Positions 7,558-54,271 of a DNA stretch of 64,000 bases are shown here, in pieces. Origin of the DNA: Lolium rigidum. Taxonomy: Eukaryota > Streptophyta > Magnoliopsida > Poales > Poaceae. A model generated the notes under the pieces. That model saw nothing but the letters and a program-made list of their open reading frames with translations. It did no database searches and was not told the origin of the DNA. A program made the translations under genes and the position numbers. Numbering within the stretch: the stretch's first letter is position 1; the number at the start of each line of letters is the position of its first letter. The DNA lies in NCBI RefSeq assembly GCF_022539505.1, contig NC_061510.1, forward strand, positions 281,912,715-281,976,714, written 5' to 3'.

Positions 7558-7657
7558 CTAAAAAGTAGAGAAACGTGCATGACAAGCTTCACGAAATTCC
7601 TCCTCAACTTTCTTCCACCCTGGCTGCGCTACTCGACCACCGTACGTCATCAACACC

Positions 7658-30716: not shown

Positions 30717-30721
30717 GCTGT

Positions 30722-31265
30722 TGTCGAGGGTGCTCCTCGGCAATGCCCTCCGATAGGGGCTTAGGGTTGGTGGAATCCTGCAAGCTGACACGAGACATCG
30801 GTTCACAGACAAGCGGGGAGAGCGATTTACCCAGGTTCGGGGCCCTCGATGAGGTAAAACCCTTACGTCCCGCCCTGTCTCGTTCTTGATTATGATGAAA
30901 ACAGGTTACAATGGGGTGCCGAATAGTTCAGCTGTAATCTCGTCGAGATGCTAGTTGCTAGGGTAACCTAGTTCTAAGCTTCTGCTGGCTAATATTGCTA
31001 AGGTTGATTGTCCCCCTCGATAACCCCTCTCCTGGCCTTTATATAGATGGCCGGGTCCCGAGAGGTCTAATCGAGTACGAGTAGGTTTACAGTAGATCTA
31101 TCTCCGATCTTTCCTTGTTCGGCTTCTTCCGTGCCTTGTACTCCAAGCAATCTTCCGCCGCACCGTCCTAGTGGCCCATCTTGCCATTGGGTACCTTCAT
31201 GGGCCTCCAGTTGGACTGTGTAGGGTAGAGCAACATTGATTACCCGAAGGGTAATGCCCACGTCA
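30722..31265 (-). repeat. 3' LTR of element A
   Basis: 544 bp. On the plus strand it runs from TGTCGAGGGTGCTCCTCGG to GGTAATGCCCACGTCA. It contains TTTATATAGATGG near 31038, part of the LTR promoter region (read on the complementary strand). Confidence 0.95.
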
Positions 31266-31723
31266 GTAGCCCCCGAGTGTCTAGCCGAACATAGTTCGGG
31301 TGGAGACTAGAGCATGTCTTCTTCCGAAGTTCTTCTCCTCGATCATCCTTGCCTTTCTTCTATCTTCTATCTTTTATCTTCTATCGGGTGCGCGTCAACG
31401 CTCCCGATGGGAGTAGCCCCCGAGTCTAGGTACGGATGCTTGCAATCCGTGCGTAGACTCAAGTTGTACTACTCGAACATCTTCTTCTGCCGAAGTTTTT
31501 CCTGCAAGTCTTTGTAGACCATCCGATACATTTTCTTTATGCAAGGGATAACGAATAATGTGCCCAACTTTTGTTGGTTAACTGCCGATGGCAAAACAAC
31601 GTTACCCTACACAGAATCAAGTCCCCGGGCATGATCCTGGAGTGCGAAAAAAAAATTTATCGGGTGCGCATTCAGCGCTCCCGATGGGAGTAGCCCCCGA
31701 GTCTGAGCATGGGCGCTTACGTC
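31266..31723. repeat. PPT and repeated hairpin/PPT-like cassettes of element A
   Basis: Directly inside the LTR is GTAGCCCCCGAGTG (minus CACTCGGGGGCTAC), the polypurine tract that primes plus-strand synthesis. The cassette CTCCCGATGGGAGTAGCCCC followed by CGAGTCT recurs at 31401 and 31678; the hairpin alone recurs at 32802. Each cassette joins a CTCCC-GAT-GGGAG hairpin to a second copy of the PPT-like sequence. Confidence 0.8.
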
Positions 31724-31823
31724 NNNNNNNNNNNNNNNNNNNNNNNNNNNNNNNNNNNNNNNNNNNNNNNNNNNNNNNNNNNNNNNNNNNNNNNNNNNNN
31801 NNNNNNNNNNNNNNNNNNNNNNN
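31724..31823. other. assembly gap, 100 N
   Basis: Exactly 100 N, the usual placeholder for a gap of unknown size. It falls just upstream of the antisense gene fragment of element A and between repeated cassettes, so missing sequence may be much longer than 100 bp. Confidence 0.99.
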
Positions 31824-31843
31824 TGGGCTGTAAGTATTAACCC

Positions 31844-32401
31844 ATGCTCTACTTTCTCGCCGAAGTTTTGAATATTCCTTTAACTGGTTCTTATTCCTTT
31901 CCAGTCGTAGCTTCAGATGTGACTGAGGAGAACAAGAAGATCCATGAAGAGGTTGAGGCAATGACTGATGTTGCGCACCCGAATCACGGTTTGTGGCAGC
32001 ATCGTCCGGAGGCTGTTGTCATGGCGAAGTTTAAGTATTGGGTGGGGAAAGCGCATTATTACTTTGATAAGTTCCACACTCATCTTACGATGGTTTGGAA
32101 GACCTTGTTTCCTCTGGATCAAGCACCCGAAAGCTTATCTGCCTTGTTCACCCGATTCAAGTCTCCCGAAAGGATTCGACAGCTGGTGCGGAAGGAACTC
32201 CTGGCTGGTGCGGAGGTTGCTTTTGCTTCAATATTGGCATGTCATCCATCTCTAGACTTGGGAGCCGTAGCAAACACCGAGAGGAGCTTAGGCCAGTATT
32301 ATGATGCCGCTAGAGGTCCTGCATACACCATTGTTTCTCGGATGGAGTCGTGCCTTGAGAATGACCTGAAGGCCCATTGGGACCGGGGAGCTCGACTATG
32401 A
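31844..32401 (+). CDS. Antisense gene fragment of element A (C-terminal part)
   Basis: Open frame on the strand opposite to gag-pol. It reads VVASDVTEENKKIHEEVEAM, then HLTMVWKTLFPLDQAPESL, RIRQLVRKELLAGAEVAFAS, ILACHPSLDLGAVANTE and a stop. It aligns in order with the last exons of the antisense gene of element B (EENKRIYERVHAL, VWKTMFPLNAVPLP, VRSQVFAGAKCTLALVLACYPS). No ATG-anchored N-terminus is present because the preceding part is lost in or before the N gap. The first residues after the gap are probably intronic. Function is unknown; the helical, charged composition suggests a coiled-coil tail. Confidence 0.6.
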   Translation: MLYFLAEVLNIPLTGSYSFPVVASDVTEENKKIHEEVEAMTDVAHPNHGLWQHRPEAVVMAKFKYWVGKAHYYFDKFHTHLTMVWKTLFPLDQAPESLSALFTRFKSPERIRQLVRKELLAGAEVAFASILACHPSLDLGAVANTERSLGQYYDAARGPAYTIVSRMESCLENDLKAHWDRGARL

Positions 32402-32958
32402 ATGTAATAGCCTTAGTTCCCGCATAAGATTATTTTGCATAAATTTATTGCGTACGTTGCATGCTATGTTAATTCGATTGATATTTTATTTGTCGGGGGC
32501 GGCCGAGTGATCGCCCAACCTGCTCTCCCGACGACTTCGTTGGATTACGCAATGTTATTGCGAAGACTTTGTGTAAGTTTTGTAAAAGCGAGACCCGTCG
32601 ACTTAGTCGAGGGAATTAGACGCTTGGCATCGTCACGCGGTGCACCGGTTTGAGCCTTATTTTGTGATAATGTAACCATCGACTGCAGCACTCGCGTATT
32701 TTCTCGAGGCTTGGATTGGTTGTTTTCTTTTTGTGTGTCACTAATCTTAACTCCCGTTGAGAGTATTTAATTAATGACACTGCGTGTTTTCTAGGCCAGC
32801 GCTCCCGATGGGAGTAAGAGCCGAAGGTAGGGGCCGCGGTCGACTCGTTCGGTGGTAGGGCCTAAATTGAAGAAAGGAGGCAGAAAACCTGATTAAAACT
32901 TTATTCATAAGGAAAAGCAACTTTAAAGGCTATTTAAATAATAAAAAACGATCGCGCC
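32402..32958. other. element A spacer between antisense gene and integrase end
   Basis: No coding sequence on either strand. Contains one CTCCCGATGGGAG hairpin (32802-32814). The 3' ends of the convergent pol and antisense genes meet here. Confidence 0.5.
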
Positions 32959-34878
32959 CTATGTATAGAACCGTCGCAGGTGTGCGATATTCCATGGATT
33001 TCCGACATCTTTTCCCGAAGTTGGATTTTTGAGCCTGTACGCTCCCCCTGGTATCACTTCGGTGACGATGTAGGGTCCTTCCCATGGAGGCTCGAGTTTC
33101 GAGGGCCTTTTTTGTTTCAGCCGAAGTACCATATCTCCAATACTAAAGCACCGGTTGCGTATTCGTCGACTGTGGTAGTTCCTCAGCGCCTGCTGGTATA
33201 CCGTGGTTCTGGCTAAAGCAATGTCTCGGGCTTCATCTAGTAGGTCTACATCATCTTGTAGTGCAATGTTGGAAGAGGGTTCCGTGTATGCCATCACTTG
33301 AGGTGCTTCGAATCGAACATCAGCTGGCAGGACTGCTTCGGCTCCATGTACCAGAAAGAATGGGGTGTACTGCGTTGACCTGTTAGGTGTGGTACGCAAA
33401 CTCCAAAGTACTGATGGTAACTCTTCGATCCAAGCTCCCTCTGCGCCTGTAAGACGCTTCTTGAGACCGTCCCCTATTAGACCGTTGATCCTTTCCACCT
33501 GACCATTTGTTTGCGGGTGAGCCACTGATGCGAATTTCAGTTTTATTCCCCTGCCATCACAAAATTCTCGGAATTCTTTGGAGTCAAAGTTAGTCCCGTT
33601 ATCTGTGACGATACTGTGAGGCACACCGAATCGACATGTTATTTCCTTGAAGAATTGGACTGCTGTTTTTGCCTTCCGGTTTCGTATCGGTATCGCCTCG
33701 ATCCACTTTGTGAATTTATCGACTGCGACTAATAAGTACGTGTCTCCTCCAGGCGATGATCTCGGTAGTGGTCCAACTTGATCGAGTCCCCATTGGGCGA
33801 ACGGCCACGCCAAGGGTATCGTCATCAGGTCTGTTGCAGGGGCGTGCGGTTTTGGGGAAAACCGTTGGCAAGGGTCGCACTTCATGACCAGATCTCGAGC
33901 ATCCGACGCCGTCGTTGGCCGCGTAAAATCCTGCCCCGAAGGCTTTGCTACGAGAACCCTACTTCCCGCGTGATGCCCGCAAGTTCCCTCGTGTATCTCA
34001 CGCAGCAGTGCTCTTCCGTCGTCGATGGCAATGCACCTTTGGAGGATACCGGAGATGCTGCGCTTGTAGAGTTCACCGTTTACTATGGTGAAAGCTTTCG
34101 ATCGCCTAACGATTCGTTTTGCTTCTACTGGATCCGCCGGCAGTTCCTGCTTTGTTAGGTACTCCAAGAACGGTTTAGTCCATAATGGCTCAAGGAGGAG
34201 GACTTGTTCGGCTGGGAGAGTTGAAGCTTCGTTGGCGATTTGCTGCGGGTTTGCCTCTGCTTCCTCAGTCGATGGGTTTAGAGGTGCTGGCGCCTTCTCT
34301 TTTATTGATCGCTGAGTGATCACCTCGTAAAATACTCCATCTGGGATGGGAGAGCACATGGAGCCGATATTTGCTAAGGTGTCGGCTTCCTCGTTGCTAG
34401 CTCTGCCGATATGTTTGAGCTCGCACCCCTCGAATTTGGCTTCCATATTTTGATACAGCTGCCGATAGGTGATCATGTTGTCGCTAACTGCGTCGCACAG
34501 ATTCATCGACTGTTGTACTACCAAGTTTGAGTCCCCGTAGATTTCCAGGCGAGTCGCCCCACACGCCTTTGCCATCTTCATTTCGTGCAGCAGTGCTTCG
34601 TATTCTACTTCATTGTTTGTCGGCAGAGAGAAGTTCATACGTAGTATATACTTCATCTTATCTCCTTGTGGTGATATCAGCACCACTCCTGCTGCTGCGC
34701 CTGTGCTTCGTTTCGACCCGTCGAAATACATTATCCACGATCCCGACATGTCGGGTGCCGGAGGTGTCTGGGATTGAATCCAGTCCGCCACAAAGTCTGG
34801 GAGGATTTGGGATTTTATAGCCGTCCGGTTAACGTAAGTTATGTCGTGAGGTGCTATCTCGATAGCCCATTGGGACAC
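32959..34878 (-). CDS. Element A RNase H (archaeal-type) plus integrase, 639 aa, open
   Basis: Intact 640-codon frame. Residues about 48-170 are an RNase H domain with acidic residues in MYFDGSK (D53), NNEVEYEAL (E92/E94), IYGDSN (D116) and NEEADTLA (D166). This is the second, archaeal-type RNase H of Tat Gypsy elements. The integrase follows: an HHCC zinc domain (HEGTCGHH, then CDPC at 334-337), then the DDE core in GLDQVGPLP (D366), VTDNGTNFDS (D426) and NGQVERING (E462). The C-terminal GPYIVTEVIPGGAYRLKN resembles the usual DNA-binding end. The stretch KPSGQDFTRPTTASDARD after the HH pair departs from the usual GFYWPT pattern, so a small indel is possible there. Normally it would be part of a larger polyprotein; upstream frames are broken. 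Confidence 0.92.
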   Translation of the reverse strand: MSQWAIEIAPHDITYVNRTAIKSQILPDFVADWIQSQTPPAPDMSGSWIMYFDGSKRSTGAAAGVVLISPQGDKMKYILRMNFSLPTNNEVEYEALLHEMKMAKACGATRLEIYGDSNLVVQQSMNLCDAVSDNMITYRQLYQNMEAKFEGCELKHIGRASNEEADTLANIGSMCSPIPDGVFYEVITQRSIKEKAPAPLNPSTEEAEANPQQIANEASTLPAEQVLLLEPLWTKPFLEYLTKQELPADPVEAKRIVRRSKAFTIVNGELYKRSISGILQRCIAIDDGRALLREIHEGTCGHHAGSRVLVAKPSGQDFTRPTTASDARDLVMKCDPCQRFSPKPHAPATDLMTIPLAWPFAQWGLDQVGPLPRSSPGGDTYLLVAVDKFTKWIEAIPIRNRKAKTAVQFFKEITCRFGVPHSIVTDNGTNFDSKEFREFCDGRGIKLKFASVAHPQTNGQVERINGLIGDGLKKRLTGAEGAWIEELPSVLWSLRTTPNRSTQYTPFFLVHGAEAVLPADVRFEAPQVMAYTEPSSNIALQDDVDLLDEARDIALARTTVYQQALRNYHSRRIRNRCFSIGDMVLRLKQKRPSKLEPPWEGPYIVTEVIPGGAYRLKNPTSGKDVGNPWNIAHLRRFYT

Positions 34879-35145
34879 TCGACTTCGTGGCCTCTCGGAT
34901 TAGTCATTATATTTTTCAACGGCGCTTCGCTCACGACGACAATCGGATGCTCGTGAAGTAGTGCCGTAGCTTGCGGAGCTGACCTCCATGCTGCATATGC
35001 CGCGCTTCGATGATGAGGGTACCTCTTGTCTTGCGGGTGTGAGTACTTCGCCGAGGTAGTAAACGGGCCTCTCGCACGCCATGAACTCTCCCTGCTTCTT
35101 CTCGTTCGACGACCAAGACGCCGCTGAAGACTTGGGCTGTCGCAG
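34879..35145 (-). pseudogene. Element A connection/first RNase H region, frame-broken
   Basis: On the minus strand the RT frame ends at TPARRKRCSCT. Continuation is found in other frames (REKETLLMYIAATAQVFSGV, then YYLGEVLTPARQEVPSSSKR, then ERSAVEKYND and a stop at 34900). The order matches the Gypsy RT-linked RNase H. At least two indels in about 250 bp separate the reverse transcriptase from the downstream RNase H-integrase frame. Confidence 0.6.
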
Positions 35146-36051
35146 CTATGTACATGAGCAGCGTTTCCTTCTCGCGGGGGTTACAAGAACTGGAGATGTC
35201 GACAAGATTTTCTTCAGGTTGTCGAAAGATTCCTGCGCCTCCTTTGTCCACTCGAACTTTTCCGATTTTTTCATCAAATTGTAGAAAGGCAAAGCTTTTT
35301 CTCCTAGCTTGGCGATGAACCTGCTGAGCGCTGCTAAACGTCCTGCCAACTGCTGCACTTGATGCAGATTCTTTGGCGGCTCCATGTCGAGAATAGCTTT
35401 GATTTTTAAAGGGTTGGCTTCGATCCCCCTGGCCGAGATGAAGTATCCTAGCACTTGCCCTCCTGGTACTCCGAAGAAGCATTTTTTGGGATTCAACTTG
35501 ATCTTATACCTGTCTAGGTTATCGAAGGTCTCCCGCAAATCGTCGACGAGGGTGGCAGTGTGCTTCGTTTTCACCATGATATCGTCAATATAGACTTCGA
35601 TGTTTCGCCCGATCTGCTCTCCAAGGCAAGCTTGTATGCAACGTTGGTAAGTTGCTCCCGCATTTTTCAACCCGAAGGTCATGACGTTGTAGCAGAAAAC
35701 GCCGTGTGGGGTGATGAACGCGGTTAGCTCCTGATCTTCCTTCTTCAATTTGATCTGGTTATACCCAGAGTAGGCATCGAGGAAGGAGAGGCGGTCGCAC
35801 CCGGCTGTGGAATCGACTATCTGGTCAATTCTAGGCAGCGGGAAGTGGTCTTTCGGATAGTGTTTGTTGAGGCCGGTGTAATCGATACACATACGCAGAG
35901 CGGTGGTGTCCTTTTTGGGTACCATGACAGGGTTAGCCACCCACTCTGATTCCTTGAGCTCTCGGATAAATCCTGCTTTACGAAGTCGATTGATTTCCTC
36001 ACCAATTGCTCTCCTCTTGGGTTCAGAGAATCGACGCATCGACTGCCGCAC
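35146..36051 (-). CDS. Element A reverse transcriptase
   Basis: Open frame of 301 codons covering a Gypsy reverse transcriptase: LRKAGFIRELKESEWVANPV, VPKKDTTALRMCIDYTGLNK, SFLDAYSGYNQIKL (first catalytic Asp), FGLKNAGATYQR and the YIDD catalytic box in NIEVYIDDIMVKTK. It then has LNPKKCFFGVPGGQVLGYFI and the start of the connection domain. The frame enters from upstream by a shift near 36050 (GELAKHALNVDPTDQ is in another frame) and leaves by a shift near 35150, so a single polyprotein is not made. All catalytic motifs are present. Confidence 0.88.
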   Translation of the reverse strand: MRQSMRRFSEPKRRAIGEEINRLRKAGFIRELKESEWVANPVMVPKKDTTALRMCIDYTGLNKHYPKDHFPLPRIDQIVDSTAGCDRLSFLDAYSGYNQIKLKKEDQELTAFITPHGVFCYNVMTFGLKNAGATYQRCIQACLGEQIGRNIEVYIDDIMVKTKHTATLVDDLRETFDNLDRYKIKLNPKKCFFGVPGGQVLGYFISARGIEANPLKIKAILDMEPPKNLHQVQQLAGRLAALSRFIAKLGEKALPFYNLMKKSEKFEWTKEAQESFDNLKKILSTSPVLVTPARRKRCSCT

Positions 36052-36179
36052 TCGGTTTGGTCTGTCGGGTCAACATTAAGGGCGTGCTTAGCGAGTTCCC
36101 CGGGGATACCCGGCATGTCGGATGGTTCCCATGCAAATATCTCCCGGCGCTCACGGAGGAACTCGATGAGCGCGCCTTC

Positions 36180-36608
36180 CTATGCGACCGTAAGGTCAGC
36201 CGATATATTGACCGTTTTCTTCGGGTCAGTGGGGTGCACCTGCAGCTTCTTGGCTTCCTTTGTAGCGTCAAACTCGTCGGATCTTACGTTTCGGTTGTCG
36301 GCTGGTGGCTGCGTATGATCCACGGCTGCGTCGATCGCATTGAGTTCCTCTTTAGCGCCGAATTTCGAGGCGATCTTCTGGAACTCCCTGTCACAGGTGT
36401 CTGATCGAGCAAAACTCCCGTGAACAGTTATTGGGGTTCCGTTGTTGCCTGGCATCTTCAGTTTTAGGTACGCGTAATGAGGCATGGCCATAAACTTGGC
36501 AAACGCCGGTCTGCCGAGGATGGCATGATACTGAGACTCCCAGTCGACAACTTTGAACTCGATCTTTTCTTTCCTGAAATTGGTGGGCGTGCCGAAGACC
36601 ACATCCAA
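36180..36608 (-). pseudogene. Element A protease-RT linker fragment
   Basis: Minus-strand frame reading MDVVFGTPTNFRKEKIEFKV, YHAILGRPAFAKFMAMPHYA, YLKLKMPGNNGTPITVHGSF. This is the C-terminal half of the retroviral-type aspartic protease (ILGRPAF) and the linker. It is out of frame with the protease active-site segment before it and has a stop near 36180 before the RT. The homologous segment survives in element B at 48316-48657. Confidence 0.7.
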
Positions 36609-36659
36609 TGACGTTTTTCCAAGGGAATAAGCGGGTCGAGTCAGTATAATGCCATGGAA

Positions 36660-37841
36660 TCATGTGTCGGATTCCCTCAGCATATCGACTGTTAAACCCA
36701 TTGCTCTCATTGTGTTGGCGAATAGTAGGTTTAAGCCGCTTCCTCCGTCCATGAATACTTTGCTCATGTTGTACCCTCCGATCTGCGCCTCGAGGACTAG
36801 AGCTGCATGGCCTGGTCTAGGGACGACTTTCGGGTGGTCTGTCCTGTCGAAGGAGATACTTTGTGCAGACCAGTCGATGAATTCGGGTGTGTCGACCATA
36901 ACGACTTCTGCGTACTTCACTTCTCGCGAGAATTTCTTGATTTCCCTTTTTGAGAAGCTGGTTTTATGGATCATGCTGACCTGCCCGCGCGGTTCTGGGA
37001 ATACCTCGGCTGGTACATACTCGCCCTTTTCCATTGGTTCGTACGGCTCCGGCATGTATGGCTCCGCCCGATAGATGTAGGATCTTGCCCTTTTCTCCAT
37101 TATGTGAACTCTTGATATAGCTTCACTCCTGAGGTCATCGCAGAACTGTCGAATCTCCAGGAAGTGTCGGCAGTTCCTCAATAGGTGACTGGATTTCTCC
37201 CGACCGTCCTTTGGGTCGATATAGGAGTGGAGGTAGCATGGCGCATCGAGTTGCTCCGTGGCCGATAAGTGTGGTGAACGAGCGCGGCCATGGATCGACT
37301 GCACGCCCTCCTGTTCCCGTTCGGACTGACGAGGGCGAGGCGCTGCACGTTCTTCTTCTCCATGGTATAATTCCCTTCGCCTTTTCTTTCGCCCTGTTGT
37401 GGGATCAAAACTTCCTCGGCTGCCTCCATGCGTGCTTCTGGGTGGAATTCCCAAGGTTGCTGCCAGGGTATCCTCTGCCGAAACCGAGGGCCCCACATCG
37501 GACGTATCTGTCCTAGGGAGGCGAAGAAAGCCTCCGGAGTCGATGATGAAGTGGACGCCTCCAAAGGTGGTGGTCATGTCGTCACACGATTCCGCAGGAA
37601 TCACGTGCGACGGCTTGAGGTGTGGTACGAATTCGAAGGATCCGCAACGAATCGGATCTTTCGGATCTGGAGGCGTTGGTGACTCGAGCACGAACGCTGC
37701 AGATGTGACTGGTACTGCCGATGCCCTGCCTTGTGCCGACAGGCTTCCCACAGACGGCGCCAATTGTCGAGGGTGCTCCTCGGCAATGCCCTCCGATAGG
37801 GGCTTAGGGTTGGTGGAGTCCTGCAAGCTGACACGAGACAT
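36660..37841 (-). pseudogene. Element A gag remnant plus protease active site; capsid missing
   Basis: 393-codon frame. It opens inside the right LTR (MSRVSLQDSTNPKPL), reads through the primer-binding site (QLAPSVGSL), and continues with a proline/serine-rich N-terminal region and a basic stretch. It ends with the zinc-knuckle-like CYLHSYIDPKDG...HLLRNCRHF block and the aspartic protease active site AQIGGYNMSKVFMDGGSGLN. The Retrotrans_gag capsid block, clear in element B (DSARAWLRGLPKGSVKSWDD), is absent between RAPRPRQSEREQEGVQSI and the CYLHSY block. The simplest explanation is an internal deletion. After MLRESDT the protease is out of frame. Confidence 0.75.
37746..37763 (-). other. Primer-binding site of element A
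   Basis: Minus strand TTGGCGCCGTCTGTGGGA, one to two bases inside the 5' LTR. The TGGCGCC core is the usual tRNA-complementary start in many cereal Gypsy elements. It fixes the element orientation as minus. Confidence 0.88.
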
Positions 37842-38306
37842 CGGTTCACAGACAAGCGGGGAGAGCGACTTACCCAGGTTCGGGGCCCTCGATGAGGTAA
37901 AACCCTTACGTCCTGCCTGTCTGTTCTTGATTATGATGAAAACAGGTTACAATGGGGTACCGAATAGTTCAGCTGTAATCTCGTCGAGATGCTAGTTGCT
38001 AGGGTAACCTAGTTCTAAGCTTCTGCTGGCTAATATTGCTAAGGTTGATTGTCCCCCTCGATAGCCCCTCTCCTGGCCTTTATATAGATGGCCGGGTCCC
38101 GAGAGGTCTAATCGAGTACGAGTAGGTTTACAGTAGATCTATCTCTGATCTTTCCTTGTTCGGCTTCTTCCGTGCCTTGTACTCCAAGCAATCTTCTGCC
38201 GCACCATCCTAGTGGCCCATCTTGCCATCGGGTACCTTCATGGGCCTCCAGTTGGACTGTGTAGGGTAGAGCAACATTGATTACCCGAAGGGTAATGCCC
38301 ACGTCA
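37765..38306 (-). repeat. 5' LTR of element A
   Basis: 542 bp. About ten differences from the 3' LTR at 30722-31265 counted by eye, including an indel near TGTCTGTTCTTG. Ends TGCCCACGTCA before the duplication GCTGT. Confidence 0.95.
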
Positions 38307-38455
38307 GCTGTTTTGGGCTTTTCCCACCTTAGCCCTTAGTTGTCCAAGAGAGAGCCACACGCCCACACCTCATCTAGAATATGCACCGTGAAGTGTGGTA
38401 AATGATGGAGCAAAGCATCTAAAACAAAACGCTGGAGAAAAGTCCTTGTTATAAC

Positions 38456-38681
38456 TGTTAGAAGTAATTGAGATGTAGATTGAGAGAGACAATAAATGAT
38501 TCAACTATTCTGTTCCATTGATGATTCACAACTTATATACAAGGGGAAGGGACGCGAATATGGGTCACGTCCGTTCGAAGAGGTGTGAGGAAGGGTTGTG
38601 TCTGTTGACAAACCAATCAACATAGGGAATTACATGAGGGAGGATTACCCCTTTAATTAACCTATTAATTAAATCCTAACA
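38456..38681 (-). repeat. 3' LTR of element C
   Basis: 226 bp, from TGTTAGAAG to TCCTAACA on the plus strand. Followed inward by CTCCCCCTAATCC, whose complement is a G/A-rich polypurine tract. Confidence 0.93.
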
Positions 38682-41600: not shown

Positions 41601-42420
41601 AATTATTGGAGGCACATTAAGAGAATTTTGCATCATTGTCCATTCGAATTGATTATAATTCATTTTCAGTCCACACTATGGTTGGAAGAGGCCACAAATA
41701 TCACCTCGAATGCATTCGATCGAGGGACTTAAGTGATCTAGCTTTGATATTGAGGTATATGAGAACCTCAAAATGGGCTACATATCCGATGATTGAGAAA
41801 ACTTAGTTTCATGCAAATCATGACCAATGGAATTGATTTACAGGCAACATGTGCTACGGGTTGGTTGTATGTGTAGTACAATCCAAACAATAGAGAGGGT
41901 ACCTTTTCAAATAACATGTTCCTCATCCATCGGATTGGCTCCCGCAGAAATCTATATATCGAATTCAAGAGTTTCTGGTATGAAAATATTTATAAAATAT
42001 ATAGAGGACATCCAATCTTATTTATATCAGAGTGCTGATACAATATATGTATGTTGCAACAACATAAATAGACATGAATAAATCAATCACTAAGGAGATA
42101 ATGGGACCACTCAAAGTCTCCAAACATGTCGACTAAGGCATACTCAATCATCATGTTCTCCATGCCCATAGGGTCATGTGACCGCTAGAGAGGCGTGGTG
42201 TTGCAACGTCCATGAGAAACGTCTTGCAAACAACTAGCTCCATTGGTGCGGTCTGGATAAAGGTTGAAGTGAGCTTCAAACCTTTTTTCCTTGAGGTACT
42301 TTGCGTCCCTGGAATTGCTGGTAGAGAATTGCCAGATGCTTCGGGGTCTTGCACTTGTTAGTAGGATGCGTGTAGCACCCACACTTGTCACAAAGCTTAG
42401 TTTTGTCAAACTCTGTCTTT
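38682..42420 (-). pseudogene. Element C pol remnant and gag zinc knuckle, heavily decayed
   Basis: Minus strand. Near 42,360-42,410 is the gag zinc knuckle CDKCGCYTHPTNKC (C-x2-C-x4-H-x4-C), followed by PKHLAILYQQF. Most of protease, integrase and early reverse transcriptase (about 40-42 kb) is unrecognisable, broken into short frames. At 39680-39892 the Copia RT end is seen (MDKSYPSPMPVVRSLDVEKD, then LGLEVPYLSAIG). At about 39210-39344 the RNase H end is seen (WGINILQVKSHNNDVGLFTK, SLPTSTFHKYF). The order zinc knuckle, RT, RNase H on the minus strand confirms Copia and orientation. Confidence 0.68.
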
Positions 42421-42425
42421 GCAGT

Positions 42426-42972
42426 TGTCGAGGGTGCTCCTCGGCAATGCCCTCCGATAGGGGCTTAGGGTTGATGGAATCCTGCAAGCTGACACAAGAC
42501 ATCGGTACACAGACAAGCGGGGAGAGCGATTTACCCAGGTTCGGGGCCCTCGATGAGGTAAAACCCTTACGTCCTGCCCTGTCTCGTTCTTTGATTATGA
42601 TGAAAACAGGTTACAATGGGGTGCCGAATACTTCGGCTGAGATCTAGTCGAGATTGATGTTGCTAGGGTTGCCTAGCTCTAAGCTTTTCCTGGCTAAGGT
42701 TGCTAAGATTGTCCGTGTCCCTCCAAGCAGCCCCTCTCCTGGCCTTTTTATAGGAGGCCAGGTCTCAAGGGTCCTAACCGAGGATGACTAAGTTTACAGT
42801 AGTTTTAGATCCAATCTTTCCTTGTTTGTTCGCTTCCTTGTCTTGCCTGTCAAGGAATATTCTGACGCGCCGACCTAGTGGCCCATCTCGCCTTCAGGTA
42901 TCTTCATGGGCCTCCAATTTGTCAATACCAGATAGGGCAACGTCGGTTACCCGAAGGGTAATGCCCACGTCA
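42426..42972 (-). repeat. 3' LTR of element B
   Basis: 547 bp, TGTCGAGGG to CCCACGTCA on the plus strand. Contains CTTTTTATAGGAGG in place of the TTTATATAGATGG of element A. Confidence 0.93.
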
Positions 42973-43550
42973 GTAGTCCCCGAGTGTCTAGCCGAAGATA
43001 ATTCGGGTAGAGACTAATGCATGTTTTCTCCTTCATTGCTTTTGTTCATCTTGATTATGCTTCATCTTCTTTTTATCGGGTGCGCGTCAGTGCTCCCGAT
43101 GGGAGTAGCCCCCGAGTCTAGGTACGGATGCTTGCAATCCGTGCATAGACTCAAGTTGTACTACTCAAATACTTTCCTCTGCCGAGATCTTCATAAGTCA
43201 TCCGATATATTTTCTTTATGCAAAGGATAATGAGTAACGTGCCCAACTGTTGTTTGGTTAACTGCCGATGGCAAAACACCGTTACCCTACACAGAATCAA
43301 GTCCCCGGGCATGATCCTGGAGTGCAAAAAACTTCTATCATGTATGCATCACGAGCTCCCGATGGGAGTAACAGCCCCCGAGTGCCTGGGTGCACGCGCT
43401 TTGCAACCGAGTGCTGATTCAAACCTTCTTCCTTCGACTGCCCATTCTGTCGAGTATTCATTTTATCGGGTGCGCGTCAGCGCTCCCGATGGGAGTAGCC
43501 CCCGAGTCTAGGTACGGATGCTTGAAATCCGTGCGTGGACTCGAATCCTT
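42973..43550. repeat. PPT and hairpin/PPT-like cassettes of element B
   Basis: The PPT position reads GTAGTCCCCGAGTG. The CTCCCGATGGGAG hairpin recurs at 43093, 43356 and 43483, each followed within a few bases by an (A)GCCCCCGAGT PPT-like sequence; a lone hairpin lies at 46693 inside the antisense gene. Two of the cassettes also share TATCGGGTGCGCGTCAG before and CTAGGTACGGATGCTTG after, as in element A. Confidence 0.8.
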
Positions 43551-43937
43551 CATCCGATAACTTTTTATGTTTCCTTCGAATGCTTCCAAATTATGACGTC
43601 ATTGCTGACGTGTAACTGCTGCAGGCTGATTTGACGGGCCCATCATGATGAGCTAGCCCTAGCCCTGCTCAATCAGTGTTTTAGGGCTTGACCACTATAC
43701 GCGTAACGACCGAGGTGGCTCCTCGATTTTCGCGCAATCGTGGGTGTAGTGGGCCGTCAGTTCCTTCCCTTCCTCAAGCGCCACGTGCTTACTTCAATTT
43801 TTCCTTAAAATCTCCAAGGGACAAAAAGTTCTCAATTTTCTCCACGGTTCCCGCAGCATCGCCTCATTCTCCCTCTTCTTCCTTCTTTCGCCATTGTTGC
43901 GCCGCCGCCACAGTTTCAATCTTCCTCAGATCTCGCA
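43551..43937 (+). promoter_or_regulatory. Probable promoter and leader of the antisense gene
   Basis: Plus-strand sequence between the cassettes and ATG 43938. CT-rich blocks (CCTCATTCTCCCTCTTCTTC) just upstream of the ATG resemble a plant 5' leader. No clear TATA box. Confidence 0.35.
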
Positions 43938-46900
43938 ATGGTGAAGAAGAAGAACACCGCCGCCGTCGCTAGCTCCACCCGCCGAAGGTGCCGCTGCCAA
44001 GTCCTCCTCTTCTCTTCCGAAGGGGAGCGCTCCAAACGCCCCTCCCCCAGCTCCGGCGCCGCCAGCGCCGTCGGGCTCGATGGCCAAACCTGGGGACTGG
44101 GTAGCTTCAACCGTCACCAAGCGCGACGAAAAGAGGTCTCGAAGCTTAGGATTGATATCCTCCGACGCGGGAGATGTGATCCTTCCAGGTGCGATCTCTC
44201 GGCCTGATCCTCCTGCTGGATTTTCTGTGATGTTCTTATCTTTTCTTCATCGAGGCCTTTCACTCCCCACTCATGGATTCCTCCTCCATCTCTTGCGGAC
44301 GTATGAAATCCAATTGTGGCAACTTACCCCCAACTCAATCCTCCATGTTGCTGTGTTCATCACCCTTTGCGAGGCGTTTTTGGGTATTGAACCTCATTTC
44401 GGGCTGTGGAAGAAGATCTTCTATGTGAAAAGATACAGCAGTAGTAATTGGTACTTTGTCACCGGAGGAGTAGGTTTTGTTGCTCGCTCAGAAGTTAATT
44501 ACTTTAATTTTCCAATGAGAGAGTCTGTGCAAGGATGGAGGTTGAAATGGTTTTACGTTAAAGATTCCTCGTCACCCGAATGTCGACTCCCCTGCTATGC
44601 CGACGTTACTGAAGCCAAGCCCAAAGACTCTTGGAAGAACATCCTATCAGCCGATGAAAGGGCCTCAGCCGAAGAATTGTTCGCCAAATTCCTTCGAATC
44701 AAAGAGGCCGACGGCCAAACTATGATTGGTACGGAGGTGGCAGCAGTTTTCCTGAAGCGCTGAATCCAGCTCGGCCATGGCCGCAGTTCACCCGATGTGG
44801 TTGTACTCAGGTCCAAAGGATGAGACCAGGATCAATGCTGCCGATCTATCAGAAAAAGAGTTGCTTGACGAAGTTCGTCGTCTTACTTCCTTCAACCAGG
44901 AAGATTCGATTCCGCTGATCTCTTCTTATGCTCCCCTTGACGTTGATCATCCATCATCAGGGGTATTTTCCTTTTTTCACATCTCTATTATAGCTCCTTG
45001 CTTAGCCGACATGATTACCTTTGTTCTTACTTGTCATTCTTCTTTGCCAGATCCCTATAGCTTCTGAAAATACACGTGATTCACCGGGTGATACCTCTGA
45101 GGGGAAAGGCTCCTCAATCCCAGTAGATTTCCACACCATCGATCAAACAGGTTTAGAGGATGAATATAATGGTCCAATGAATCTTGAAGTTGCCCGCGCT
45201 GATCTTCCCTCCTCAGCCGATAATACTTGTATCGCAGATGGATCAGTGCGTAACGTCGACACTGATCGTGATACTTTTGTTGATGCAGTCACGGATGGGG
45301 TCAGAGCTTCTCCTGCGAAGAGATCAACCGGCGGTTTTGCCGATGAAGATGATCTCTTCGACATGTAAGTAGTTCCTTTCTGAAAGTTATACTGTGCCTT
45401 TTTTACCTTCCATACTTCTGTTATAATCACAGTCGATCGTTTACTTTTTGCAAGTGACGAGGGCTTTATCGAGCCTCCTCCTAAAAAGGCCAAATCCGAT
45501 GCTCGTTTCGCCGGTCGTGGTGGCTTCCGAGCTTCGGCTCCTAAGGCTGCCCCCATGGCTCAAGCATCGACTCGCGTCTTCCCTTTCCAAAGGGAAGGAT
45601 ATTTCTCCAACCGCTGCTATCGCGGCTCCTTTTTCCGTAAGTCCTCTTCTCGATCTTAATACAAATTCCTTGGAGCGTGCCCTGTTTAATTGTTTTTCTT
45701 TCTCTCTTTAAGGACCTGCGTGGCGTTATCTCCTCTCTTGGAGGTTTTCGCCTCTCGATTCACTTCTCTAGAGGCTGACAAAGTTCGGCTGCAAAAAGAA
45801 GTCGAATCTTCCTCCTCAAAACTGGATGGCGCAGTCAAGATAGTCGCCGCGGCTCGGCCAAGAGATTGATTCTCTCGAAAGAGGAGCTGGCCAAACTGAA
45901 AGGGAAGCTGAAGGAAGAAGAAGCATCCAGGCTGGTAGCTGAGGCTCGAGCAGCCGAAAAGGATGAAGTCCTTCGTCAATCTTCTTTGGCCTTGCTTGGT
46001 AACCTCTAACATACTTTTGTCGGGAGACGTTCTTATGTATTTAAACTTTTTGTCAATGACTGAATTTTTTCCTTTTTTTCTATTGCAGAGGCAGCAAACA
46101 TTCCTGTCGATGCCCTGGAAAGAGTTCCAAATAATTCCCCAGCGAACGCGGTGTCAACGATTCTCGCTTCTCACCAGCTTACACAAGAGCTTCTTGTGAA
46201 GGGGAAGGGTGCTCTGGCGCGGATGCACTCGATGATCTTCCCCAAGATTAAGCAAGAGAAGACACTGGGACAGCTGATCGATACCTTCGTGGTTGACACC
46301 AAGGAGGTCATCGAGGTATTCAAGCGTACATCGCGCACTTTTGGTGCTGTCCTAGCCTTCCAGCTTATGATGGGTTACGGCTTTAAGGGTGACATCGAGG
46401 AAATGACTAAGGGGCTTCCAAAAGGGCAAGACGGGCAGCCTGTTGATTTGAGCAACTTTAAGGCATCTGCTCTTACTTGTGCCCGTCAGCTTCTTGAACT
46501 GGTTTCATCAAGGAAATCTTCGACTGGCCCTAGTTCATCGACTCAAACTCAGCTTCCTTGATTCTTGTACCAAACTTGTGCCTTGAGTTGATGCAAAACA
46601 TTGCTCTGCCGCCAAACTCATGTTTTGTAATAAACTTTGTGCTAGCATTTGTTGTAGGCCCACTTTTGCTATGATATCACTTTCTTGCACTTCTCCCGAT
46701 GGGAGTTATTTTGGACGTTGGGCTGTACCATATCCATCACTTTTTTATAACCAGTACTTCTTGCAGGTCTTCCCAGTACCCTCATTTGCAGACGACTCGT
46801 CGGGTGCGCTTCCTGAAAGCGATCGGATCCAGTGCATGAAAGACCGAATAACACAGATGGAGAAGGATTTACGCAGCACTTATGCCTTAGCTGCCATCGT

Positions 46901-47491
46901 CAATAAAAAGAGCGAGATTGCAGCCGACGTGGAGCGGTACATTCTTGGCGAGCTGCATAAGGCTACCGAAAGTTTAAACTGTAAGTTTCTTGATCCTTTT
47001 GCCTGCTTGCTAGCAACTTCTTGTCTGAGTCTTTTACTAATTCTTTTGGCAGTCATAGCGTTGAACCCTGCGGAAGAGAACAAGCGGATATACGAGCGGG
47101 TGCATGCTTTGACTCAGCTTTCCTCATCCGAAGAGATTTTCTGGCGGGAACACTCGAAGGCTTCGGCCGTCGTCAAATTTCAAGATCGAGTGCAACAGGT
47201 CCACCAGCTTCTTCGACAAGTGCTACAAGGCCATGAGGATAGTTTGGAAAACAATGTTTCCTCTCAATGCGGTTCCCCTACCCTTTTGACTTTGATGAAT
47301 TTGGAAGTGCCAAGAAGGTTCGGGAGCTAGTAAGATCTCAAGTCTTTGCAGGGGCCAAATGTACGCTTGCCCTTGTGCTTGCTTGTTATCCTTCAGCTTG
47401 CTTGCTGTCTATTGCCAACGCAACTGGTGATTTCGAGGAGCCTGTACCGAAGGTTTTAGCTCCTGCTCATGTAATTGTCGACAGTGCTTGA
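43938..47491 (+). pseudogene. Antisense gene of element B, putative-gypsy-transposon (PF04195) type
   Basis: Starts MVKKKNTAAVASST at 43938; one base shift before MAKPGDWVASTVTKRDEKRS. The domain at 44080-44763 reads GFSVMFLSFLHRGLSLPTHG, LTPNSILHVAVFITLCEAFL, PHFGLWKKIFYVKRY, VNYFNFPMRESVQGWRLKWF. This is the conserved block annotated in plants as putative gypsy-type transposon (Transposase_28). Further exons follow: ETRINAADLSEKELLDEVRR (44.83 kb), GFIEPPPKKAKSDARFAGRG with a nuclear-signal-like KKAK (45.46 kb), a coiled coil (LEADKVRLQKEVESSSSKLD, 45.77 kb), TILASHQLTQELLVKGKGAL (46.16 kb), MKDRITQMEKDLRSTYALAA (46.84 kb) and a tail ending VIVDSA at 47491. GT-AG borders are visible at several joins. 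Small frame breaks (43.97, 45.87 and about 47.2 kb) suggest it is no longer intact. The biological role is unknown. Confidence 0.7.
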
Positions 47492-48315
47492 GGAGATGTC
47501 AAAGGTACTCGAGGAAAAGGAAACTCCGCAAGGGTGATGTAAAGGTGTAAAGTTACTTTTGTAAATTGTATTGGCTAATTCATCCGAGTGTTCGGGTTTT
47601 TGGGCCAAAAACTTCTTATCTGGTTGGTACATGAATGTGTACTTTTACCTTGCCGTTGGCAAATATTTAAAGGGGCGAAGCTTAATTGCCCGTTGGATGT
47701 ATGAGTACTAGTTGGTTAGCAAATCATTATGAGTGATCAGCTCGTGTTGCGGGTTTTGCTAAACTCCGTTGTATGCGCAACTTTGCTTTCAACCGTTTGT
47801 AAATTTCGACAGTCATTCCCGAATTTTTCGGGTGTAATGGTTCTCGCCGATGAGCCCGTTGCTCTCGATATTTCCATAAGTGAAATATCGAGCGTGGGTT
47901 GTGTGTAAGTTTTTCCAAACTCTTGCTTTATACGGCACTCGTAGAGGCATCTGAAGCAGAGGGAAAGGTGACGTCATTTTAGCACTCGTAGAGGCTTTTT
48001 GGAGCATGATCTTCCGCCCTGTACTATGTTTGCATAGTGATGGGGCTTAGAAGTTTGTAGTTACTGCAATGCTTAACAAGAATCGAAGCTTTAAGTTCTT
48101 ATTAATAAGGTAAGCACGATGCTAGAGGGCGAAAAGAGGAAGGCCCTGTTTATAATGAAGGGAAAAAAAGAAAGTAAAGGCTGGTAAAGTGCTTAGTCAA
48201 GGAAGGGGTTCTTCTCTTCTTCTGGCTTCTTCTCCGCGTTAGTGATTGCTGCAGCGTTGCTGGTTTCATCAGGGGTTTGAGCGGTGGTTGCCAGCGTCTT
48301 GCTTTCTCCTAAACC
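47492..48315. other. element B spacer between antisense gene and gag-protease end
   Basis: No coding sequence on either strand. The place corresponding to reverse transcriptase-integrase in element A is absent. Contains a duplicated GCACTCGTAGAGGC phrase (47,935 and 47,982). Confidence 0.45.
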
Positions 48316-51300
48316 TTATGTGCCATCAACTGCCGAACCCTTTGCTGCCGAAGCTTCTGCTGCCGAAGCTTTAAGGGCGAGAGCGGCTGGCTTCTTCTTT
48401 ATTTCCCGGCCATCTTTTTCTTCCTTGATCTCTCGTAAGGACAGCTTGGGCGGAAGGTCGATGATTTCTTGCTGTTTCCCGAACTTCGCAGCAATCCTCT
48501 GAAAGTCGCGATCACAATTGTCCGAGCGCGAAAAACTTCCATAGACTGTGATGTTTGTCCCATTATTCCCAGGCATTTTCAGCTTGAGGTATGCATAATG
48601 TGGTACAGCCATGAACTTGGCATACGCTGGTCTCCCGAGTATAGCGTGATACCGTGACTCCCAGCTTCACCACTTCAAACTCGATTTTTTCCTTCCTGAA
48701 ATTATCGGCTCTACCGAAGATAACATTCAGTAAACTTTGCCAAGAGAGTGGCCCGGTGCGGTTGGAAGGATCCCGTGGAAGCAGTGTGTCCGTTTCTTCC
48801 AGAGCATGCTCATGGTGATCCCCATGCTTCTGATTGTGTCGACGAATATCAGGTTTAGTCCGCTTCCACCATCCATGAAGACTTTGCTCATCTTGAACCC
48901 CCCAATTTGTGCTTCGACTACCAATGCGGCGTGTCCGGGTTTTGGTATGGTCATCGGGTGATCTGCTCGACTAAATGTAATGTTCTGAGAAGACCAATCG
49001 ACGTATTCAGGGATATTTGCCATGATGCTTTCTGCCAAGTTGATCTCTCGGGTGAGCTTCTTCATCTCCCTTTTCGAAACACCTGTCCTGTGGATCATGC
49101 TCATCTGCCCACGTGGTGGTGGAAACGCCTCGTTGGGTTGATGGGTTTGAGCCTGCTGGACTTGATGCTGTGGTGGAGGTGGGGGTGGTGGTGGTATCTG
49201 TTGCTGACCTGACTGCTGGATGAGTTTGTGCTTGTCAAGGAACTGCCGACAGTCCCTGAGCAGGTGACTTGACTTCGTCTTGCCGTCCTTGGAATCGACA
49301 TACGAATGTAGGTAACAGGGGGCGTTGACCTGTTCGGCGTAAGGTAGTTCGGGAGTTCTCTGCTGTCGTGGTTTATAGTTACCACGGTTCCCAGAGTTGT
49401 TCCGGTTACCATCGTGCTCGTCGTCTCGATCGTCCCGCCGATCGGAATACCCTACGGCTACCGCATTGTTGTCATCGTAGTTGCGGTTTTTCCTTCTCTT
49501 GTGACGATCCCTTCGGCCACCCGAGTCGTGCTTCGGCTGGTCATCGTCTTCGTCATCACTACGCTGCCGTGGCCTTCGTACGTTATCCTCACCATCAGCC
49601 CAGCTGTTGGCGATTTCCATTAGCTTGGTTATGGTTTTTGGCTTTTTGCGCCCGAGTTCTTCTATGTAACTTTCCCGCTGAACGCCGTCGCTGAAAGCGT
49701 CGATTGCTCTGTCGACAGATACGTCTTCGGCGGCGTTGAGGAGCTTCGTGAATCTCCCGATGTATGAACGCATTGACTCCTTCGGCTTCTGCCGACAGTT
49801 CCGTAGCTCTTCGATCCCGACGGGCCTCTTGTATGTTGCTTGGAAATTGGCAACGAAGGCGTCTACTAGGTCGTCCCATGATTTGACAGAACCTTTCGGC
49901 AGCCCCCTTAGCCAGGCCCGTGCTGAATCTTTCAAGTAGAGCTATAAACACTGCATTGCCGCTATCTGGTTTCCTTTGTGCAGGATCACTGTCTGCAGGT
50001 AGTCATCTATCCAGGATCTTGGCTCTTGCTGCCCATCATATTTGGCAGCGTCAGTAGGGGTAGGCTTAAACTTTTTGGGCGGCATTGCTTCGCGTATCTT
50101 GTAACTTAAACAATCGGCTCCCCTGAGTTCGCCGTCGTACTCCTGGTCTTCATCCGAAGAATCGCTGTCGTCGTCTTTCCTGGTGGCGCGTCGCCGTCTT
50201 GCTTTGTCGACCCCTGCTCTGGGTGATCTCGTCCCGAGCGTCTCTCGCGTGATGTTTTGACCCACTACCTTGGACCATAGTCCTTTCCTTTTGCGGGACT
50301 AGGTTGTTCCCCAATATCGCGAGACTTTCGAGGGCACCTCGGTGAGCTTGAGCCATAGATCCTTCGGGCGCCTGGTTGATGAGGTAAGCGGCGAGGTTGG
50401 CCGTTGCTCCCGCAACGGTTTTCGGCCGTGGCATGCCCGCGGTATCCGTAGTCACAAAGGACTTAGTCGGATTCGATGTTATCTCTCCGGCGTCATCTTC
50501 CGAAAGCCTCGATATCCTTGACCGGTGCTTGCCTCGCTCCCTGAGTGTTTCGGGAGGCACTCCCTTGTGAGCCCCTTCGTCGTTCGCTGGATCGATCCGC
50601 TGCAGATAAGCGTCTCTCGAGGGAGGCTTGCTCTTTTGAAAGGTGCTCCCGATTCTTCTCTAGTATGGAGCGATAAGCATTGAGGGTTCCAACCGAAGTC
50701 CCCGCGGGGAGCGGCGTATTGTTAAGTACTGCTGCCCTTGCTGCTGCCCACTCCTCATCCGCGATGGTGTAATCGTCTGTCACGGTTGCTCGGCGCTATT
50801 CTCAAAACTCGCCCTTCTACTGGAACGAGGGGTATGATCCTCGTCACCTCTACGCCTTGTGTTTCCCGTGTTATTGGCGACATAAACCTGATGGTGTGCC
50901 GGTCTTCGGGTGATTCCCTGGACGGTGCTATCGATACTGTCCTCTCCCGACGAATATTGGGCGTTGCAGATGAACGGCGTGTCGCTCGATCCCAACCCGT
51001 GCCTGGTGTCGCAGTTCAGGCAGTAGTACGAGGTTAATTCCGAAGACGTGGGATCGTCAGACCCTACCGACATGGAGGATACCGAGCGGGGAGTCGAGGG
51101 CGCTGGTGAGCACGTCGATCTCGTCGGACCAGCCGACGGATCGGGTGATGATGGTGCGCTTGACCTCGTGGATCCGGAGGTGGGAGATTCCAGCAATCGA
51201 AGGATTCCTTCTGCGTTGACGTTGTAGTGGACGCTGCCGAAGGTCATCTCCATGTTCCCTTGTAGATCTGAAAAGTTCGAGCGGGAGGAATCGCTGTGTG

Positions 51301-51550
51301 GAGTAAACTCGTAGGAGCCGAATCGAATCGGGCTTCCCAGGATTGGCGACGATGGAGTCGACGAAGTCGCCGATGGATTTGCCGGCGAATTTGCCGGCGA
51401 AACGGCCGATGTCATGATCGGAGCTGCCGATGTCCTGCCTTGTGCCGACATGCTTCCCACAGACGGCGCCAATTGTCGAGGGTGCTCCTCGGCAATGCCC
51501 TCCGATAGGGGCTTAGGGTTGATGGAATCATGCAAGCTGACACGAGACAT
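48316..51550 (-). pseudogene. Element B gag-protease, capsid present, several frameshifts
   Basis: Opens in the right LTR (MSRVSLHDSINPKPL), reads through the primer-binding site, then a serine/proline-rich N-terminal region to 50780. Continuations lie in new frames: DEEWAAARAAVLNNTPLPAG (50.75 kb), TANLAAYLINQAPEGSMAQA (50.39 kb), AAKYDGQQEPRSWIDDYLQT (50.02 kb). The Retrotrans_gag capsid reads DSARAWLRGLPKGSVKSWDD, FVANFQATYKRPVG and LRNCRQKPKESMRSYIGRF (49.93-49.75 kb). A basic tail, then CYLHSYVDSKDG...HLLRDCRQF, and the protease active site FKMSKVFMDGGSGLNLIF (48.86 kb) follow. The frame then breaks before YLKLKMPGNNGTNITVYGSF and ends at 48316 with alanine-rich repeats. At least four indels. 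Confidence 0.8.
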
Positions 51551-52016
51551 CGGTACACAGACAAGCGGGGAGAGCGATTTACCCAGGTTCGGGGCCCTCG
51601 ATCAGGTAAAACCCTTACGTCCCGCCTGTCTGTTCTTTGATTATGATGAAAACAGGTTACAATGGGGTGCCGAATACTTCGGCTGAGATCTAGTCGAGAT
51701 TGATGTTGCTAGGGTTGCCTAGCTCTAAGCTTTTCCTGGCTAAGGTTGCTAAGATTGTTCGTGTCCCTCGGCAGCCCCTCTCCTGACCTTTTTATAGGAG
51801 GCCAGGTCTCAAGGGTCCTAACCGAGGATGACTAAGTTTACAGTAGTTTTAGATCCAATCTTTCCTTTTTTGTTCGCTTCCTTGTCTTGCCTGTCAAGGA
51901 ATCTTCTGACGCGCCGACCTAGTGGCCCATCTCGCCTTCAGGTATCTTCATGGGCCTCCAATTTGTCAATACCAGATAGGGCAATACTGGTTACCCGAAG
52001 GGTAATGCCCACGTCA
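51474..52016 (-). repeat. 5' LTR of element B
   Basis: 543 bp. Primer-binding site (minus TTGGCGCCGTCTGTGGGA) immediately inside at about 51455-51472. Flanked outside by GCAGT. Confidence 0.94.
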
Positions 52017-52021
52017 GCAGT

Positions 52022-54047: not shown

Positions 54048-54271
54048 GTTAGAAGTAATTGAGATGTAGATCGAGAGAGACAACAAATGATTCAACTATT
54101 CTGTCCATTGATGATTCACAACTTATATACAAGGGGAAGGGACGCGAATATGGGTCACGTCCGTTCGAAGAGGTGTGAGGAAAGGTTGTGTCTGTTGACA
54201 AACCAATCAACATAGGAAATTACATGAGGGAGGATTACCCCTTTAATTAACCTATTAATTAAATCTTAACA
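54048..54271 (-). repeat. 5' LTR of element C
   Basis: 224 bp, TGTTAGAAG to TCTTAACA, nearly identical to 38456-38681. Followed by the target duplication ATAAC at 54272-54276. Confidence 0.93.

What the first reader, a model, noticed from the sequence alone, without database searches (positions are those of the whole stretch)
30722..52016. Two LTR elements with the same ends but complementary coding losses (A: enzymes without capsid; B: capsid without enzymes)
Seen: A and B share homologous LTRs throughout, the same primer-binding site and the same gag start. A keeps RT, archaeal-type RNase H and integrase but lacks the Retrotrans_gag capsid block. B keeps capsid and protease but has no RT, RNase H or integrase. 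Known: non-autonomous LTR elements are mobilised in trans by relatives. Inference: this family may spread as a two-part system in which gag-providing and pol-providing members complement each other, unless an intact master exists elsewhere. The capsid loss in A may instead be private to this copy.
Basis: partly seen in the sequence, partly recalled or inferred. Interest (0 to 1): 0.75.

Follow-up and report, generated by a model that had tools for sequence, protein, structure and literature searches.

The report
A retrotransposon split into two halves
In a ryegrass-like genome, one family of jumping DNA exists as two separate kinds of copy, one carrying the enzymes and one carrying the shell protein, that appear to need each other to spread, as already known for a maize pair.

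Summary
A (30722-38306) and B (42426-52016) are Retand-type LTR retrotransposons with exact target duplications and the same PBS. A has RT, RNase H and integrase but no capsid; B has capsid but no pol. A also keeps a Gag remnant, and both keep protease. The structures are not private: 100 genomic copies, picked only by the shared LTR/PBS junction, type as 60 A, 22 B, 1 odd, 17 unreadable, and none showed capsid plus family pol in what was read. A copies share one capsid-less junction, and three have both LTRs and TSDs. Retained genes show purifying selection. Coding sequence splits cleanly into A and B (100/100) with A-B synonymous sites saturated, but LTRs do not: three supported LTR clades each hold both types (AU p=0.0007), as expected if A and B RNAs meet in one particle and swap ends. 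Best reading: an old, reciprocally dependent two-part family. The kind is known (maize Cinful/Zeon; GAG-less and pol-less Retand clusters in blackgrass), so this is a well-resolved new member. Trans-mobilisation is inferred; 15 capsid copies were not read downstream, and an unseen complete master is not excluded.

The parts
37765..38306 (-). A: 5' LTR (TGACGT...TCGACA)
30722..31265 (-). A: 3' LTR; TSD GCTGT at 30717-30721 and 38307-38311
37744..37762 (-). A: primer-binding site TGGCGCCGTCTGTGGGAAG, lying inside the gag reading frame
   Evidence: frame
36660..37841 (-). A: capsid-less ORF1 (Gag N-terminus, zinc-finger region, start of protease); its first 26 codons lie in the LTR (to within one base)
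   Evidence: hhalign finds no capsid in its first 189 residues
36180..36608 (-). A: rest of protease region; ends at a stop that several relatives share (...SADL.A) before RT
35146..36051 (-). A: reverse transcriptase (PF00078) and start of RT_RNaseH
32959..34878 (-). A: RVT_3 RNase H (PF13456; 'archaeal-type' is a recalled label) and integrase (PF00665)
31844..32401 (+). A: remnant of the antisense additional ORF (no TRP28 domain); assembly gap 31724-31823 beside it
51474..52016 (-). B: 5' LTR
42426..42972 (-). B: 3' LTR; TSD GCAGT at 42421-42425 and 52017-52021
51453..51471 (-). B: primer-binding site, identical to A
50780..51550 (-). B: Gag N-terminus, again starting in the LTR
49942..50560 (-). 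B: Gag middle part and start of capsid region (two broken ORFs, 50150-50560 and 49942-50265)
48727..49935 (-). B: capsid (PF03732), zinc-finger region, protease
48199..48516 (-). B: ORF1 C-terminus of the B type (...KNPFLD*), after which no pol follows
44080..44763 (+). B: antisense additional ORF with TRP28 domain (PF04195)

Best explanation
A and B are copies of two long-separated halves of one Retand-type (Tat, Ty3/gypsy) LTR retrotransposon family. A-type elements make RT, RNase H and integrase plus a protease and a short Gag remnant, but no capsid. B-type elements make capsid Gag and a protease, but no RT or integrase. Both transcripts carry the same PBS, LTR termini and polypurine-tract region. 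Inferred cycle: B's Gag builds the particle, A's Pol copies and integrates, and both RNAs are packed as templates. Template switching between co-packed RNAs then moves LTRs between the types, so that B coding parts have come to carry LTRs of several subfamilies that A elements also carry. Shown here: recurrence of both structures, the shared junction, independent A insertions with TSDs, selection on retained genes, and the LTR/coding discordance. Inferred: co-packaging and complementation in trans.
For: Copies picked blind to coding content (the first 100 of 237 exact LTR/PBS junctions, all on contigs C1-C3): in the diagnostic 701-bp stretch 56 have the post-protease/RT part at a spacing that leaves no room for capsid (55 by RT itself), 21 have capsid, 23 are uninformative, 0 have both. 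The 20 copies read over 10 kb: 12 A (RT in 8, capsid on the element's strand in 0), 7 B (capsid in 6, pol in 0), 1 odd. Three A insertions with both LTRs and TSDs (10.6-10.9 kb; LTR ages about 0.4-1.2 My) overlap in age with B copies (about 0.7-1.3 My). Pairwise dN/dS medians: A Gag N-terminus 0.26, A NC-PR 0.09, A RT 0.04, B capsid 0.07. Lolium gene models: of 60 with a capsid signal, 40 carry the B-type tail and 0 run from capsid into the A-type tail or family pol; 13 models show the capsid-less junction. NC-PR trees: A and B are one split, 100/100. The LTR tree mixes them in three supported clades, AU p=0.0007.
Against: No expression, particle or transposition data. 137 of 237 junction places were not listed, and an exact 30-base pattern favours young copies and misses masters with a changed PBS. 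Unnamed proteins with capsid plus the pol-type ORF1 tail exist (P0029 and four others), so complete relatives probably live somewhere. L016 is a third, chimeric form. LTRs are not mixed at random (4 changes of type on the tree; 32 of 500 shuffles as low), and the third mixed clade rests on one B copy (L017). LTR similarity could in part be constraint. Of two further B copies with both LTRs, the flanks printed for L027 do not match.
Confidence: 0.75

Rival explanations
1. Both A and B are non-autonomous parasites of a rare complete gag-pol master of the same family that the sampling missed.
For: Unnamed proteins P0029, P0075, P0076, P0156, P0160 join capsid to the pol-type ORF1 tail; P0029 lies beside the A and B clades at an open fork. 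PMC11963269 Table 1 lists blackgrass cluster 3a with GAG, RH and INT (but AP NO) beside pol-less 3b.
Against: None of 100 junction copies shows it in what was read. No Lolium model fetched has capsid followed by family pol; the two long ones with both domain sets are fusions with unrelated elements (RT 27%, RH-IN 31% identity). It does not explain by itself why A genes and B capsid are each under strong purifying selection.
Confidence: 0.15
2. Loose cooperation: A borrows capsid from any of several Retand families and B's Gag is a helper bonus, so the pairing is not obligate or specific.
For: Wheat has such mixed complexes (Wilma/Sabrina/WHAM; Cereba/Quinta) (passages); L016 shows another Retand gag behind a B-type start.
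Against: LTR clades contain matched A and B copies. Capsids of other families in this genome were not compared.
Confidence: 0.08
3. The capsid loss in A is private to this copy, and B is a chance deletion product.
For: Both window copies are decayed.
Against: A junction and B tail recur in many copies and in database proteins.
Confidence: 0.01

Closest known systems
Maize Cinful/Zeon (RLG00001) and 25 maize LTR families with GAG and POL in separate copies (Stitzer et al. 2021, PMC8547701)
   Same: pol-only and gag-only subtypes of one family sharing LTRs; said to approach a mutualism, with LTR homogenisation proposed (section 19 part 1 read; section 9)
   Different: Other genome. Here copies were typed by a junction blind to coding, A-B synonymous sites are saturated, and LTR exchange is shown by tree discordance. 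Cinful/Zeon sequences were not compared here
Retand PRAREs of blackgrass Alopecurus myosuroides (Vicient 2025, PMC11963269)
   Same: Table 1: clusters 7a/b/c/i/j lack GAG but have AP, RH, INT and TRP28; clusters 2 and 3b have GAG and AP but no RH or INT (the paper's text counts only one cluster without RH and INT)
   Different: the paper treats them as non-autonomous elements needing complementation and does not pair them (section 11 part 1 and section 12 read); shared LTRs between those clusters were not tested here
RLG_Quinta/Cereba and Sabrina/WHAM/Wilma of wheat (PMC11302176, PMC9744471; passages)
   Same: gag-bearing, pol-less elements with a pol-bearing partner; Quinta/Cereba share PBS and LTR ends; template switching invoked
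   Different: there the partner is a complete autonomous element; here the pol-bearing partner lacks capsid
BARE-2/BARE-1 of barley
   Same: pol-bearing element presumed to use another's GAG (passage in PMC9744471)
   Different: BARE-1 is complete, as recalled; B here has no pol
TR-GAG elements
   Same: LTR element with only a GAG domain (name from search listing; definition recalled)
   Different: B also has protease and an antisense TRP28 ORF

Membership tests
Retand lineage (Ty3/gypsy, Tat) | antisense ORF with TRP28 (PF04195) between pol and 3' LTR | tested here: met
   B 44080-44763(+), 2.1e-23; antisense TRP28 in 7 of 12 A copies and 3 of 7 B copies read over 10 kb. Not found in window A, which has a gap there
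Retand lineage (Ty3/gypsy, Tat) | RT phylogeny within Retand | not tested
   no reference RT set was aligned
Retand lineage (Ty3/gypsy, Tat) | second RNase H (RVT_3 type, called archaeal; recalled as a Tat trait) | tested here: met
   PF13456 1.4e-14 in 32959-34878 and weak RT_RNaseH_2 behind RT
Split gag/pol family of the Cinful/Zeon kind | GAG and POL domains in separate copies of one family, under 1% with both | tested here: inconclusive
   0 of 100 copies with both in what was read, but 15 capsid copies were not read downstream and 17 copies were unreadable
Split gag/pol family of the Cinful/Zeon kind | shared, homogenised LTRs | tested here: met
   identical PBS; three supported LTR clades hold both types
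Split gag/pol family of the Cinful/Zeon kind | each type needed for the other's transposition | not testable with these tools
   inference from anatomy and recombination only
TR-GAG | LTR pair with GAG and no pol (recalled) | tested here: met
   B: PF03732 present, no RT or IN by Pfam or tblastn
BARE-2-like pol element without own GAG | pol present, functional GAG absent | tested here: met
   A has pol and no capsid. It works like BARE-2 but is gypsy-type by domain order; BARE-2 as copia is recalled

The most novel reading that the evidence does not exclude
The family is an obligate two-segment retrotransposon: no complete gag-pol copy has existed in this host lineage for a very long time, each half is kept by selection on genes that serve the other, and LTR exchange through co-packaged RNAs keeps the halves matched in subfamilies. 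A's capsid-less Gag remnant would be kept because it docks A's Pol or RNA to B's particle.
Probability: 0.5. Interest if true: 0.72.

Novelty: new member of a known kind. Interest (0 to 1): 0.5.

Why it matters
Symbiotic relationships within a mobile-element family had been thought remarkably rare (PMC8547701). This case is unusually clean: both halves are common, conserved and datable, coding and LTR histories disagree in a way that records past co-packaging, and LTR clades holding both types make partner specificity testable. It also suggests that GAG-less Retand elements, tabulated elsewhere as defective (PMC11963269), can be a long-lived lineage under purifying selection.

Tried and rejected
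Private capsid loss in A: rejected. A hidden, diverged capsid in A: hhalign of A's first 189 residues against two capsid profiles gave probabilities of 0.4 and 0.2, while three controls gave 99.9-100. AlphaFold models of A's ORF1 (pLDDT 33) and of P0124 alone (pLDDT 39) were too poor to use, so no fold search was run. IMG/VR scans with A pol and B gag found no confirmed relative. Lolium models carrying both capsid and pol (P0145, P0159, P0212, P0213) were rejected as gene-model fusions by order or identity. NG86 dS for A vs B returned no value in NC-PR and post-PR because it is saturated. The B NC-PR dN/dS set contains one A-type locus (L011) by the identity filter, so 0.15 is rough. L013 and L025 (long branches) and L016 were dropped from the LTR tree; the tree with all 22 LTRs also mixes the types. 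The AU grouping is by coding content, but the test was run after seeing a tree. The NC-PR tree holds 15 of those 19 copies (L017, L018, L019, L022 had no usable stretch). A 57-residue match of a P0145 stretch in L016 was not followed.
Full report
WHAT IS THERE. A and B lie on the minus strand. A is 30722-38306 with LTRs of 542/544 bp and the duplication GCTGT; B is 42426-52016 with LTRs of 543/547 bp and GCAGT. LTR pairs are 97.4% (A) and 96.7% (B) identical, about 1.0 and 1.3 My at 1.3e-8 per site per year (rate recalled). The PBS is identical and the sequence beside the 3' LTR is alike. Pfam finds RVT_1, RVT_3, rve and a weak RT_RNaseH_2 in A and no Retrotrans_gag; in B Retrotrans_gag and no pol. 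B has an antisense ORF with PF04195 (TRP28), found in 97% of recent Retand clusters (PMC11963269 abstract). tblastn confirms the complementary absences. A keeps the Gag N-terminus, zinc-finger region and protease, so protease is not split.

WHICH GENOME. The best database matches are Lolium multiflorum models (nearest NC-PR matches 96% for A and 97% for B). I call it ryegrass-like; the species was not established.

ARE THE STRUCTURES RECURRENT IN PROTEINS? Three protein searches listed 223 different proteins (120 of 125, 120 of 318 and 65 of 65 hits listed). I sorted 109 as Lolium by the printed names and 114 as unnamed. Of the 109, 60 carry a capsid signal: 40 of these carry the B-type tail (...KNPFL in the intact ones), and none runs from capsid into the A-type tail or family RT. 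Two (P0145, P0159) carry family pol, but upstream of the capsid; P0212 and P0213 are fused to unrelated pol (31% and 27% identity). Thirteen Lolium models and six unnamed proteins show the capsid-less junction, nine of the Lolium ones with family pol. A NC-PR tree of 91 rows puts the A junction rows in one clade (27 rows, 100/100, no capsid-bearing row) and the B rows in another (34 rows, 100/99), with the unnamed capsid-plus-pol-tail protein P0029 beside them at an open fork. The ancestral state was therefore probably complete (inference).

ARE THEY RECURRENT IN THE GENOME? The 30-base junction of LTR end and PBS, identical in A and B, occurs 237 times exactly; the first 100 places (contigs C1-C3) were listed and all 100 were sampled. 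Twenty were read over 10 kb. Twelve are A-type: RT in 8, RNase H-integrase in 7, antisense TRP28 in 7, and capsid on the element's strand in 0 (L014 has a 35% match on the other strand 9 kb away). L022 is called A by its Gag N-terminus alone. Seven are B-type: capsid in 6 (L019 has the B-type N-terminus and only a 29% capsid match), pol in 0, antisense TRP28 in 3. L016 is odd: a B-type Gag start followed by another Retand gag. In A copies the Gag N-terminus match ends and NC-PR begins about 190-240 bp apart in all 11 copies that show both: one shared junction. The other 80 were read over 701 bp. In all 100, that stretch shows the post-protease/RT part at capsid-less spacing in 56 (55 by RT itself), capsid in 21, nothing in 23, both in 0. 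Joining the two readings: 60 A, 22 B, 1 odd, 17 untyped.

THEY MOVED IN THIS STATE. Of 7 A copies given their 3' end, 3 have both LTRs and a duplication (L015 TCGGG, L021 ATGGA, L028 CATGA; 10.6-10.9 kb; about 0.8, 1.2 and 0.4 My); one (L011) has a partial 3' LTR match and three none. B copies L020 and L027 date to about 0.8 and 0.7 My; L020's flanks share GGCGG if its last LTR base is changed, and L027's printed flanks do not match. Window A, 7.6 kb, is thus a shortened A-type copy or is missing sequence in its gap.

SELECTION. Pairwise NG86 dN/dS medians (pairs not independent): A Gag N-terminus 0.26 (13 copies), A NC-PR 0.09 (12), A RT 0.04 (8), A RH-IN 0.11 (5), B Gag N-terminus 0.15 (5), B capsid 0.07 (7), B NC-PR 0.15 (7, one of them an A locus). 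Median dS among A copies in RT and NC-PR is about 1.1: A-type diversity is old, tens of My at the usual rate by my arithmetic, though near-saturated values are rough.

CODING AND LTR HISTORIES DISAGREE. Between window A and B, synonymous sites are saturated (third positions differ at 61% in NC-PR and 66% after it), yet LTRs are 83-84% identical, the LTR 3' end-PBS-leader block 90-97% and the stretch before the 3' LTR 86%. On 15 copies the NC-PR tree is one A|B split, 100/100; on 19 LTRs (of 22) the types mix in three supported clades (A4+B1, A2+B2, A4+B4), at least three changes are forced by supported branches, and A LTRs as one clade are rejected, p=0.0007. The mixing is not random (32 of 500 shuffles need as few changes), and the B1 copy, L017, is not in the coding tree. 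B coding parts that are nearly alike (window B and L024; L020 and L027) carry LTRs of different clades. Template switching between co-packed RNAs explains this directly; constraint on LTRs does not explain the mixing.

WHAT IS KNOWN. The concept is in print. Stitzer et al. 2021 describe maize Cinful (pol) and Zeon (GAG), and 25 maize families with GAG and POL in separate copies and under 1% with both, a system that 'approaches a mutualism' (PMC8547701, section 19 part 1 and section 9 read). Vicient 2025 tabulates blackgrass Retand clusters lacking GAG and others lacking RH and INT (PMC11963269, section 11 part 1 and section 12 read) without pairing them. Wheat gag-bearing, pol-less elements with complete partners are known (PMC9744471, PMC11302176, passages). 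The listings of my ten paper searches showed no such pair described for Lolium; only open-licence papers are held, and listings show only the top papers.

LIMITS. The exact pattern favours young copies; 137 places were not seen; no expression data. A complete master at low copy number is not excluded.

Noticed in passing
37765-37841 and 51474-51550: The gag reading frame starts inside the 5' LTR: its first 26 codons lie in the LTR (to within one base) and it runs on through the PBS, in both types and in database proteins beginning MSRVSLQDSINPKP.
   Followed up: partly
31724-31823: A 100-N assembly gap lies in element A next to its antisense ORF remnant, so A's missing TRP28 domain may be an assembly matter.
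   Followed up: partly
L016 (about 5800-9500): A copy with the family's LTR and a B-type Gag start followed by a second, different Retand gag (capsid 53% identical to B-type) and no pol by the A-type query: a possible recombinant third form.
   Followed up: partly
31379-31704 and 43071-43542: A short motif (CGGGTGCGCGTCAGCGCTCCCGATGGGAGTAGCCCCCGAGTCT and near variants) recurs in the region before the 3' LTR of both A and B.
   Followed up: no
60780-62607: Minus-strand ORFs with Transposase_21 (PF02992) and DUF4218 (PF13960): remains of a DNA transposon, CACTA-type by recall.
   Followed up: no
8925-10181: Tandem array of 3.6 copies of a 346-bp unit, 97% alike.
   Followed up: no
38451-38681 and 54041-54271: A 231-bp stretch, 97% identical, occurs beside element A and again downstream of B; not identified.
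   Followed up: no
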